In this document: positions 11,662-41,060 of the stretch, in pieces
Numbering within the stretch: the first letter of the stretch is position 1
How the letters are laid out: every line of letters begins with the position of its first letter
Source of the DNA: Chloroflexota bacterium
GTDB lineage: Bacteria; Chloroflexota; Chloroflexia; Chloroflexales; Herpetosiphonaceae
Length of the DNA stretch: 64,000 bases
Assembly: GCA_020161265.1 (NCBI GenBank)
Contig: JAIUOC010000001.1
Span: 744,001 to 808,000 of the forward strand
Reading direction: 5' to 3'
Position numbers and translations under genes: made by a program
The notes under the pieces: generated by a model
The model's input: only the letters and a program-made list of their open reading frames with translations
Databases searched by the model: none
What the model was told of the DNA's origin: nothing

Positions 11662-12102
11662 TCACGTAAGTTGCTGAGCAAGCCCAAGAATAATGCCTTC
11701 GGGGCCGCGAATAAAACAGAGCCGATAGAAGTTCTCATACTGGGCAATTTCACCAACAATTTCAGTACCATGTGGGCGCAAGCGAGCCAGAACGGCATCA
11801 AGATCATCAACGGCAAACATAATCCGTCGGATACCCAAGGCATTCGAAGGGGCATTGTTTGGGGTAACATTCACTGCCGCTGGAGTATGAAATTGGGTTA
11901 GCTCGACCCGCCCGTGACCATCTGGAGTGCGCAAGGTTGCAATTTCACATTGTACATTCTCAAGCCCAACGACCTGATCAACCCACGGCCCAGCCAATGG
12001 CATCTCGCCCTCAAGTTCCATGCCAAGTTCAATAAAGAACGCCTTTGCAGCCGCAAGATCGTTAACCACGATCAACACATTGTCCATCCGTTGAAGCGCC
12101 AT
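11662..12102 (-). CDS. VOC-family (glyoxalase/bleomycin-resistance) protein
   Basis: 146 aa, the usual size for a protein with two betaalphabetabetabeta modules. Starts MALQRMDNVLIVVNDLAAAK with FFIELGMELEG, and has a second module IRRIMFAVDDLDAVLARLRPHG ending GPEGIILGLAQ, the typical VOC layout. Likely metal ligand positions include Glu and His residues in RVELTQFHTP. AGGAAGG lies before the ATG. First gene of the leftward VOC/unknown/hydrolase group. Substrate unknown; resistance cannot be assumed. Confidence 0.88.
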   Translation of the reverse strand: MALQRMDNVLIVVNDLAAAKAFFIELGMELEGEMPLAGPWVDQVVGLENVQCEIATLRTPDGHGRVELTQFHTPAAVNVTPNNAPSNALGIRRIMFAVDDLDAVLARLRPHGTEIVGEIAQYENFYRLCFIRGPEGIILGLAQQLT

Positions 12103-12198
12103 CGTTGTTCCTTCCTCGGCTATTGCCTGCTCACGACCTACCCGAATAATATGCGAACCTAAGGCTCATCATAGCTATGGTGTCAATGTTGTTATGCC

Positions 12199-12293
12199 TA
12201 AAACCACAAACGACCCGCTGGGGGTCGCTTGTGGGAGAGAAGAGAGAGGAGAAGGTTTGACTTAATCATACCAGAGCATTCAGGGTATCGACA
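12199..12293 (-). ncRNA. candidate small RNA B (own promoter, pyrimidine tract, terminator)
   Basis: Read leftward: -35 TGTCGA (12293-12288), 17-bp spacer, -10 TATGAT (12270-12265), then a pyrimidine-only tract CCTTCTCCTCTCTCTTCTCT (from 12255), then a hairpin ending in TTTT (12234-12200). A transcript of about 60 nt is predicted. The order, spacing and the first 12 pyrimidines match the unit at 23102-23186. It lies after the 3' end of the lipoprotein gene. The promoter and terminator are read directly; the RNA itself is inferred. Confidence 0.45.
12200..12234 (-). terminator. intrinsic terminator downstream of lipoprotein gene / sRNA B
   Basis: On the minus strand CCACAAGCGACCC pairs with GGGTCGTTTGTGG (one mismatch, arms 12222-12234 and 12204-12216), followed by TTTTAGG. 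A strong GC stem and T-run. Confidence 0.8.
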
Positions 12294-12354
12294 TTAGAAT
12301 GCTATTAATCTTGTCGGTAACTTGGAAGAAATCGCTTAACCAACCCTCGCCAGC

Positions 12355-12999
12355 TTATTGCAACGCAAAATGGCGGGCATCTTCATTATCCGACTGGTCA
12401 CGATTGATCACTAGCAAGGGAGCAGGATCATCAACCCCAACCAAGATCGGAAAATAGACTTCAATCTGATCGTCTTTGGCAACCGGGATATCAAACCGAG
12501 GTTCGAAGCAGCATGGTAGGCCTTGCATAGTTTTCACTGGCTGATATTGATTGTTAGTCAAAACCAATAACGCAATCATCGAACCATCAAAAACAACTGG
12601 TTCTGGGCGAACATTTCCATGGCTTATCTCTGCTCGAACCAAACCAACCTCGTACCCATCTGGTGGGCCAGTATACGCTGGATCAATCGTGGCAATTGTT
12701 GCCAAAGCCTGCTCACCGCGCACAAAATCAATGACTTTGAACGAGAAAGAAACATCGGTGCTAGCCATAATCAGCCTTTCGCCTTTGACGATTGGTTCTT
12801 TGGCTGAGGCAAATTCAAACGAGGATTCATACTCATCATCAGCATCAAGGTAAATAACCGTTACCTCAACCATTGTTTCGGTCGGCGCTGGTCGATCAGT
12901 GGGCGCGGATGCATTGGTTGACAACGGGCTGGCTTGGTTGCCACAGGCCGCCAGCAAGCTCCCGACCAGCAAGCCAACAAATAGTTTTCGAAATTGCAT
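12355..12999 (-). CDS. lipoprotein of unknown function
   Basis: 214 aa. Signal peptide MQFRKLFVGLLVGSLLAACG with lipobox LAAC, Cys19 the lipidated residue. A Ser/Thr/Pro-rich linker to about residue 45 is followed by a beta-rich domain with no family that I recognise (VIYLDADDEYESSFEF, LPCCFEPRFDIPV). GGTGGAG lies just before the ATG. Expected on the outer face of the cytoplasmic membrane. It is monocistronic; the sRNA-like unit and a terminator follow. Confidence 0.8.
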   Translation of the reverse strand: MQFRKLFVGLLVGSLLAACGNQASPLSTNASAPTDRPAPTETMVEVTVIYLDADDEYESSFEFASAKEPIVKGERLIMASTDVSFSFKVIDFVRGEQALATIATIDPAYTGPPDGYEVGLVRAEISHGNVRPEPVVFDGSMIALLVLTNNQYQPVKTMQGLPCCFEPRFDIPVAKDDQIEVYFPILVGVDDPAPLLVINRDQSDNEDARHFALQ

Positions 13000-23101: not shown

Positions 23102-23186
23102 TGTCAATCTAGGAGTAATGGCCTATACTCGTTGGCATCTCCTTCTCCTCTCTTCTCTCGCTAGAGCCCCGCAACTGCGGGGTTTT
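23102..23186 (+). ncRNA. candidate small RNA A (own promoter, pyrimidine tract, terminator)
   Basis: TGTCAA (23102-23107), 16-bp spacer, TATACT (23124-23129), then a pyrimidine-only tract from 23138 to 23159 (starts TCTCCTTCTCCTCTCTTCTC), a small CTCT/AGAG stem and the terminator CCCCGC/GCGGGG with TTTT ending at 23186. The predicted transcript is about 50 nt. Same architecture and same CCTTCTCCTCTC core as the leftward unit at 12199-12293. The CU-rich single strand could pair with ribosome sites such as GGAGAAGG. The RNA is inferred, not proven. Confidence 0.45.
23167..23186 (+). terminator. terminator after rpe / sRNA A
   Basis: CCCCGC (23167-23172), loop AACT, GCGGGG (23177-23182), TTTT. 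Classic intrinsic terminator. Confidence 0.88.
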
Positions 23187-23216
23187 GGCGTTAATTGGGT
23201 TGTTTAAATGCGGTGC

Positions 23217-38749: not shown

Positions 38750-39132
38750 TATATGCGAATTTTATTGAAAATAATCGTAGCGAAACATTACTCAATATGT
38801 ATTATGATTGTAGTAACCGTCACCGCAATCCATTTCAATCAATACTTGGGAAACCAGAGGCGGTAAATGGGACAACAGACATGCTTAGTCTTTCGATCAG
38901 CAGAAGAATTCAATCTCAGCCTAATAGCACAGAATCAAACTTGCAACGCTAGCCATATTTCGGTGATAGCTAGTCAAAAAATGGCACATGCCGCGCGATC
39001 CCTTTCCAAAGGGATAAACTACGTTTTTTCACCGATGTTTGTAAGGCAGAATGGCCGTTAATGGGGCAGATTCAAGGGGACCGCGCAAACCGTTCATTTT
39101 AGCGCCTTGCAAAGCCCTAAAAAATAAGGTAT
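38750..39132 (+). promoter_or_regulatory. CRISPR leader region
   Basis: 383 bp between the tRNA hairpin and the first repeat, with no convincing gene. Near 38998-39015 lies ATCCCTTT/AAAGGGAT, and a T6 run follows. A possible promoter TTGCAA (39107-39112), 17-bp spacer, TATATT (39130-39135) overlaps the first repeat edge. Assigned as leader because the degenerate repeats are at the other end of the array. Confidence 0.55.
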
Positions 39133-41060
39133 ATTCGAAAGACCTCAATCCTCTTTGGGGGATTAAAACAGCCTGCGCGGTCGTTGCCACAACAGGCAAA
39201 CCCCAAAATTCGAAAGACCTCAATCCTCTTTGGGGGATTAAAACTCGTTTGCCTTCGAGGGCTTCAAACTCGGCGCGGGATTCGAAAGACCTCAATCCTC
39301 TTTGGGGGATTAAAACGCGTTCTATGCCTCTGAGGGATTCAAGTACTCGCACTTCATTCGAAAGACCTCAATCCTCTTTGGGGGATTAAAACCGGAAGCA
39401 TGCCCGCCATCCCGCCAAGTCCACCTGACCCATTCGAAAGACCTCAATCCTCTTTGGGGGATTAAAACCCATTCCCATCTAAGAAAATACTGACCATAGC
39501 GCTTGAGATTCGAAAGACCTCAATCCTCTTTGGGGGATTAAAACCGCCGAAAACCTCATAATCATCAGGATAGGCGGAATTCGAAAGACCTCAATCCTCT
39601 TTGGGGGATTAAAACCTGTTTCAGCGGGTTTGGGTCAAACCCATCTGCAACAACGATTCGAAAGACCTCAATCCTCTTTGGGGGATTAAAACTATGCCGG
39701 ACAACCCGAATTGGCTGTCCCCTGCGCGGCAAATTCGAAAGACCTCAATCCTCTTTGGGGGATTAAAACGGCAACTCCATCAAATCGCCACGAAGCTAAC
39801 TTTGTTGCATTCGAAAGACCTCAATCCTCTTTGGGGGATTAAAACAAAACGAAATCGCCTTGCAGGCAGGCAGTGTTTTTCCAAATTCGAAAGACCTCAA
39901 TCCTCTTTGGGGGATTAAAACTCTCTTACCGGAGCTCAATCAATATTGACTACGTTGTTGCATTCGAAAGACCTCAATCCTCTTTGGGGGATTAAAACCC
40001 TGGATAGGCTTCGCATCGGCAATGGCCAGTGGCTATTCGAAAGACCTCAATCCTCTTTGGGGGATTAAAACAATGTATTACCCATGAATGCTTCAGCTTT
40101 CTTTATAGATTCGAAAGACCTCAATCCTCTTTGGGGGATTAAAACGGCCAAGAAGATAGCATCTTGAAACTGTGGCTGTTGGATAATTCGAAAGACCTCA
40201 ATCCTCTTTGGGGGATTAAAACGCCACAAAGACCGCCCAAACATCTTCATTGCCTCTGAGGATTCGAAAGACCTCAATCCTCTTTGGGGGATTAAAACAC
40301 TTCACTAACCCGTTCCCATTGTGCGAGCTTCCAAACCATTCGAAAGACCTCAATCCTCTTTGGGGGATTAAAACTCATCAAAACCATAACACCCGCCGAT
40401 GGTATAGTTTATTCGAAAGACCTCAATCCTCTTTGGGGGATTAAAACGATCATTATCGTTAGATTTGCGAAATAAATTAGATTCTATATTCGAAAGACCT
40501 CAATCCTCTTTGGGGGATTAAAACGGCTTTGTAAAACCTACGGTCTCAATTAGCACAACTCGGATTCGAAAGACCTCAATCCTCTTTGGGGGATTAAAAC
40601 GTCGATGCGCTCCACTCGCACGATCTCATGGTCTTGGCCATTCGAAAGACCTCAATCCTCTTTGGGGGATTAAAACCATTACGACATAGCGATCGGTTTT
40701 CAATGATGTATTAAGCCATTCGAAAGACCTCAATCCTCTTTGGGGGATTAAAACAATCCAGTGCGGCGCACCGACCGACTGCCGAAACAGCGCATTCGAA
40801 AGACCTCAATCCTCTTTGGGGGATTAAAACGCTCATTGCCGCCATTCTACCGTGGCCTGCATCTGAATTCGAAAGACCTCAATCCTCTTTGGGGGATTAA
40901 AACTGAAAAACCAAAATTCGACCCACGCTGGAACTAGCGACGATTCGAAAGACCTCAATCCTCTTTGGGGGATTAACACCCCAATAGCTGTCAGGAACGT
41001 CACCATGGTAATTGGCGCGTAAGATTCGAAAGACCTCAATCCTCTTTGGGGGATTAACAC
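39133..41060 (+). CRISPR. CRISPR array, 26 repeats / 25 spacers, no adjacent cas genes
   Basis: Repeat of 37 nt beginning ATTCGAAAGACC and ending GGGGGATTAAAAC; 24 copies are identical. Repeat starts run from 39133, 39208, 39280 to 40943 and 41024; spacers are 34-44 nt, mostly 36-40. Within the repeat AATCCTC can pair with GGGGATT (one G-U) around a TTTG loop, and the 3' ATTAAAAC would be the 8-nt crRNA handle, as in type I/III systems. The last two repeats (40943, 41024) end ATTAACAC, marking the old end, so the leader is on the left and transcription is rightward. No cas1, cas2 or effector gene occurs in the window. Confidence 0.98.

What the first reader, a model, noticed from the sequence alone, without database searches (positions are those of the whole stretch)
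12199..12293. Second copy of the CU-rich small RNA unit downstream of a lipoprotein gene (copy B)
Leftward unit with its own -35/-10 placed after the lipoprotein stop codon. If it were only that gene's terminator, an internal promoter just upstream of the CU tract would not be expected. Both copies follow an ordinary protein gene, so they may have been carried there as 3' cassettes.
Basis: partly seen in the sequence, partly recalled or inferred. Interest (0 to 1): 0.55.

Follow-up and report, generated by a model that had tools for sequence, protein, structure and literature searches.

The report
Multicopy CU-rich small RNA genes
The spot is one of about twelve copies in this bacterium of a tiny gene for a small RNA, with its own promoter, an almost unchanging pyrimidine-rich front end and a terminator hairpin; relatives, usually single, occur across the bacterial order, and they probably silence other genes by covering ribosome-binding sites.

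Summary
Window 12198-12260 (minus) is a 63-nt unit: CU tract, 13-bp hairpin, UUUUAG, with an extended -10 (TGGTATGAT) four bases upstream. Class III occurs across the order, usually single-copy; a model of all classes matches 47 of 82 genomes. The hairpin covaries. A -10 plus tract pattern matches 38 of 82 genomes, reversed control 0. In one family a CRP-like site is centred at -41.5 in 20 of 23 contexts. In 4 of 12 copies no same-strand gene lies upstream, and loci are syntenic within the genus, so neither 'just a terminator' nor 'moved 3' cassette' fits. Best explanation: sibling trans-acting sRNAs whose tract (CUCCU in 88 of 91 units) masks Shine-Dalgarno sites without Hfq (0 of 9 genomes). 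sRNA-gene status is well supported by comparison; SD masking is inferred, and my target test was not sequence-specific. No transcript data. Not in Rfam; no description found in the papers searched.

The parts
12198..12260 (-). copy B, class I sRNA unit (predicted transcript about 12258 to 12200)
   Evidence: CM match 86.5 bits, E 5.2e-16 in own genome (copy B is one of the six rows of that model); letters
12235..12254 (-). CU tract CTTCTCCTCTCTCTTCTCTC, predicted unpaired seed, contains anti-SD CUCCU
12204..12234 (-). 13-bp terminator hairpin, followed by TTTTAG (12198-12203)
   Evidence: fold; covariation
12265..12273 (-). extended -10 promoter element TGG TATGAT
   Evidence: class I hexamers at this offset
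12292..12308 (-). TTAATA-N5-CTAATG direct repeat, 11-bp period, overlapping the -35 position: candidate activator site (inferred)
   Evidence: shared with paralogues; a 26-base pattern around it matches 4 places in 6 genus genomes, all in front of class I units, reversed control 0
23136..23195 (+). copy A, class III sRNA unit
   Evidence: E 0.0027 with R1, 3.5e-11 with R2 (copy A is among the rows R2 was built from)
23124..23129 (+). -10 of copy A (TATACT)
12355..12999 (-). lipoprotein-like gene upstream of copy B (neighbour, not part of the unit)
11662..12102 (-). gene downstream of copy B, glyoxalase/VOC-like by eye (neighbour)

Best explanation
Copy B is a gene for a roughly 60-nt small RNA, one of about twelve siblings in this genome. 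Each sibling has its own sigma-70-type promoter, a single-stranded CU-rich 5' end and one strong hairpin that ends transcription and protects the 3' end. The CU tract, carrying CUCCU, most likely pairs with purine-rich Shine-Dalgarno sequences of several mRNAs and blocks their translation, without Hfq. Different upstream elements in front of the classes (plain TTGACA, the TTAATA/CTAATA repeat of copy B's group, the CGTTAGG/CGTAAGC repeat of class II, a CRP-like site in relatives of the f4 family) would let different signals feed one common seed. Shown by comparison: gene family, promoter, hairpin, synteny. Inferred: transcription, SD masking, activators. I put the sRNA-gene part near 0.92 and SD masking, given that, near 0.6 to 0.65.
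For: 12 full units in the own genome plus hairpin-only copies. 22-nt class III tract in 37 of 82 order genomes at up to 2 mismatches, 31 of 39 sites exact, reversed control 0 in all. TATAMT-N4-7-ATCTCCTTCTC in 38 of 82 genomes, 39 sites, control 0. Class I: 21 dissimilar upstream regions, 17 with a 5/6 or better -10 at exactly 4-5 nt, at most 2 at any other offset; 8 with perfect TTGACA. Hairpin: 47 distinct rows, 99.7% of cells paired against 71.7% shuffled, 12 of 13 pairs with both-side changes. CRP-like site in 22 of 23 contexts of the f4 group, centred -41.5 in 20. Tract kept while hairpin and flanks fall to 0.27-0.35 identity (its first 16 positions are fixed by selection). Own start regions use AGGAG in 70 of 299 genes against 0 of 299 coding controls; CUCCU in 88 of 91 tract-bearing units. 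Hfq 0 of 9 family genomes.
Against: No transcript was seen. Pairing with start regions is no stronger for the real tract than for shuffled tracts: genes at or below -14 kcal/mol are 14 against a mean of 12.2 (III), 16 against 19.5 (I), 58 against 42.8 (II), so composition explains it and no target is named. No long complement of the tract exists in the genome above control (6 sites, one of them copy A itself, against 8). 22-nt conservation is more than SD masking needs. Copy B's own -35 is weak. The U-run after the hairpin is short (UUUU) at several loci.
Confidence: 0.6

Rival explanations
1. The unit is only the transcription terminator of the gene upstream, with a CU-rich run before the hairpin.
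For: 8 of 12 own units follow a same-strand gene; hairpin-only copies L018 and L021 lie 44 and 32 nt after stop codons and look like plain terminators; in other Chloroflexota the model finds CU run plus hairpin just after apparent stop codons (L234, L235).
Against: 4 of 12 units have no same-strand gene upstream; -10 at fixed distance in unrelated flanks; tract conserved across families with different neighbours.
Confidence: 0.07
2. The tract is a ligand for a protein or for the ribosome (for example a mimic of the 16S rRNA 3' tail, or a decoy for a pyrimidine-binding protein), not a seed for mRNAs.
For: 31 of 39 class III tracts are identical over 22 nt, more than composition-driven SD pairing requires; no long complementary mRNA.
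Against: No partner identified; class II has a different tract interior; CUCCU is retained.
Confidence: 0.22
3. The unit is a leader or attenuator of the downstream gene.
For: Copy B lies 96 nt before a same-strand gene.
Against: In the own genome 6 of 12 units face a downstream gene on the other strand.
Confidence: 0.04
4. The units are mobile repeats or recently moved 3' cassettes.
For: Sequence similarity stops near the transcript ends; hairpin-only copies exist.
Against: Own loci match syntenic units in sister genomes on one or both flanks; no terminal repeats noticed by eye.
Confidence: 0.04

Closest known systems
LhrC1-5 sRNAs of Listeria (PMC4132741, abstract and passages seen)
   Same: Multicopy, CU-rich target sites, SD blocking, does not need Hfq for its target, regulator acting on promoters
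   Different: LhrC has several stem-loops and three CU motifs, five copies; here one naked 5' tract and one hairpin, 12 copies; no sequence relation tested beyond the absence of an Rfam match
csRNAs of streptococci (PMC4507080, PMC3091779, PMC8186281: search listing only)
   Same: Several highly similar sRNAs controlled by a response regulator
   Different: Other phylum and regulator; no sequence comparison made
alpha-r14 / cuckoo RNAs, NfeR1 (PMC10746234, passages seen)
   Same: Ultraconserved anti-SD motif with variable stems, pairs at the translation start
   Different: Motif CCUCCUCCC sits in unpaired regions of three hairpins; here a longer 5' tract outside the single hairpin
NmsR sibling sRNAs of Neisseria (PMC5362039, passages seen)
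   Same: Sibling sRNAs with anti-SD action
   Different: Two tandem copies, Hfq present in the host

Membership tests
Independent trans-encoded sRNA gene | own promoter at fixed distance | tested here: met
Independent trans-encoded sRNA gene | conserved RNA structure with compensatory changes | tested here: met
   (alignment A6 was fitted to R1, which favours the structure; slid controls fall to 39-51% paired)
Independent trans-encoded sRNA gene | transcript of the predicted size detected | not testable with these tools
   no transcriptome available
Sibling anti-SD sRNAs (LhrC, csRNA, cuckoo kind) | several homologous copies in one genome | tested here: met
Sibling anti-SD sRNAs (LhrC, csRNA, cuckoo kind) | unpaired anti-SD motif | tested here: met
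   CUCCU in 88 of 91 units; tract unpaired in folds
Sibling anti-SD sRNAs (LhrC, csRNA, cuckoo kind) | sequence-specific pairing with identified mRNA start sites | tested here: inconclusive
   real tract not better than shuffled tracts
Any Rfam 15 family | match at the gathering score | tested here: not met
   no hit at the units in the window; in L001-L007 at E up to 5 only RsmY, 18.1 bits against 57, at the copy A hairpin
Hfq-dependent sRNA | host has Hfq | tested here: not met
   PF17209 0 of 9 family genomes, control positive in 5 of 14 named genomes

The most novel reading that the evidence does not exclude
The 22-nt class III tract, kept letter for letter across families while its hairpin and flanks are free to change, is read by a dedicated partner (an unknown RNA-binding protein, or the ribosome, whose 16S 3' tail it resembles from recall). 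The Herpetosiphon expansion would then be a dosage-tuned, multi-signal control of translation by decoy RNAs in bacteria without Hfq.
Probability: 0.2. Interest if true: 0.8.

Novelty: new member of a known kind. Interest (0 to 1): 0.55.

Why it matters
It appears to be an undescribed sRNA family shared across an order of Chloroflexota for which I found no sRNA literature in the searches named. It offers a simple system, one exposed seed and one hairpin in a dozen copies with different promoters and no Hfq found, to ask how sibling sRNAs divide signals and why a seed is frozen over 22 nt.

Tried and rejected
Specific target search: the G:U-tolerant complement of the tract in the own genome gave 6 sites (one is copy A itself) against 8 in the reversed control. 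Duplex energies on 299 genes from 464 kb separated start regions from coding controls but not real from shuffled tracts; the control means printed there are inflated by no-duplex values, so only the counts are used. Regulon search with the class II upstream motif: 5 sites at up to 2 mismatches, all class II units; 5 more at 3 mismatches, total 10 against 5 in control. Phylum scan: 25 of 301 genomes, 15 of them in the order; 10 weak ones outside, of which I read 5 (L229, L234-L237): CU-rich run plus hairpin at four, none with a promoter like these. One search cut L234 and L235 at the wrong place; one search corrects it. First alignments A1 and A4 were poor (A1 mixed strands) and were not used for counts. 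A5 held antisense hairpin matches; A6 (stricter cut-off, 54 rows) replaced it, dropping the weaker class III rows. Four off-phylum 19-mer matches (L165, L182, L187, L196) lack the hairpin and are taken as chance. Checkpoint note 4 gives 21 of 22 for the CRP-like site; the recount is 22 of 23 contexts, L179 (labelled Gracilibacteria) included by my inference, 21 of 22 without it.

Full report
What is there. Copy B is a compact unit on the minus strand at 12198-12260, between a lipoprotein-like gene (12355-12999) and a VOC-like gene (11662-12102), both on the same strand, 95 and 96 nt away. It consists of TCAAAC, a 20-nt CU tract, a 13-bp hairpin with a 5-nt loop, and TTTTAG. The hairpin is far more stable than shuffles. 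Rfam has no match at its gathering scores.

It is one of a family. The exact 20-mer occurs five times in the genome. A covariance model R1 from six units found in the own genome 12 full units and one hairpin-only copy at E 0.0027 or better, with weaker remnants. Reading them gives three classes. Class I (five units, copy B among them): TCAAAC-CTTCTCCTCTCTCTTCTCTC-hairpin. Class II (six units): CAAA-TCCTTCCTCCTCACACACACTCTTCTCTC-hairpin, or near variants. Class III (copy A, 23136-23195 plus): ATCTCCTTCTCCTCTCTTCTCT-hairpin.

Distribution. With R2, built from 54 rows of all classes, 47 of 82 genomes of the order have a match at E 0.01 or better; the six genus genomes have 11-18 matches and three further family members 2-6. 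Some of these genomes supplied rows to R2, so those matches are by construction. A plain 22-nt pattern matched in 37 of 82. Of 34 named loci with the 19-mer, 30 show hairpin and promoter; 29 of these bear Chloroflexota or unspecific bacterial labels; one is labelled Gracilibacteria but carries the promoter, CRP-like site and hairpin, so it is probably misbinned; four are taken as chance.

Promoter. Upstream regions differ between class I loci, yet 17 of 21 dissimilar ones have a good -10 ending 4 or 5 nt before the unit, and 8 have a perfect TTGACA. The pattern TATAMT-N4-7-ATCTCCTTCTC hits 39 sites in 38 of 82 genomes, none in the reversed control. In the f4 family 22 of 23 contexts carry a TGTRA-N6-like palindrome centred at -41.5 (20), -42.5 (1) or -43.5 (1); L230 lacks it. 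Best scores of 5 to 8 occur at scattered positions in the other contexts, so the fixed position and shared letters are the argument. By recall this is the class II CRP geometry. Copy B's group shares a TTAATA-N5-CTAATA repeat, found only before class I units (4 sites in 6 genomes). Class II has its own repeat, whose 5 sites at up to 2 mismatches are all class II units.

Structure and conservation. On 47 distinct rows 99.7% of pair cells are standard pairs; 12 of 13 pairs show changes on both sides; sliding the partner drops pairing to 39-51%. Between 48 class III contexts the hairpin and most flanks are about 0.27-0.35 identical, the -10 hexamer window 0.67, positions 17-22 of the tract 0.71; positions 1-16 are fixed by how the contexts were chosen.

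Context. In the own genome 8 of 12 units follow a same-strand gene, 4 do not; 6 of 12 precede a same-strand gene (gene calls are simple ORF calls). Flanks show that loci are shared between sister species. For copy B the upstream flank matches in 5 of 5 sister genomes, but in three of them only weakly (about 71%), with another promoter type, and in two the downstream flank matches a different copy. These facts speak against a mere terminator, a leader element or a moved cassette.

Mechanism. The organism uses SD sequences (AGGAG in 70 of 299 start regions, 0 of 299 controls). The tract carries CUCCU and is unpaired in folds, and no Hfq gene was found. SD masking is therefore my first choice. 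It is not proven: shuffled tracts pair as well and no long complement exists. The frozen tract leaves room for a dedicated protein or ribosomal partner.

Known relatives. In kind it resembles LhrC, csRNAs, cuckoo RNAs and NmsRs, without tested sequence kinship. I found no paper describing it in searches; the library holds open-licence papers only.

Noticed in passing
window 39132-40903 (-): CRISPR array: 24 repeats reach the gathering score of Rfam CRISPR-DR30.
   Followed up: no
L018 and L021 (G000:C6:403010 and 401550): Hairpin-only copies of the unit 44 and 32 nt after stop codons, near a full unit (L010): the hairpin seems reused as an ordinary gene terminator.
   Followed up: partly
L016, L017 (G000:C1:124025-125710): Two class II units flank a gene with long Asn-Thr repeats, next to an ORF that reads like a Cas10-type protein by eye (not searched).
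   Followed up: no
class II upstream regions, e.g. G000:C1:186401-186421: CGTTAGG-CGTAAGC repeat whose only close matches in the genome precede class II units: a dedicated regulator is possible.
   Followed up: partly
L003:2802-3000: Sub-threshold Rfam hit to Ysr141 (46.5 bits, gathering 196, E 7.7e-10) in a region near recG-like coding sequence; unexplained.
   Followed up: no
L161 / L193 (G046:C4): Two class III units in tandem, 149 nt apart, in one relative.
   Followed up: no
L234, L235: CU-rich run plus strong hairpin directly after apparent stop codons in more distant Chloroflexota, without a promoter like those here: possibly a terminator style from which such sRNAs could arise.
   Followed up: partly
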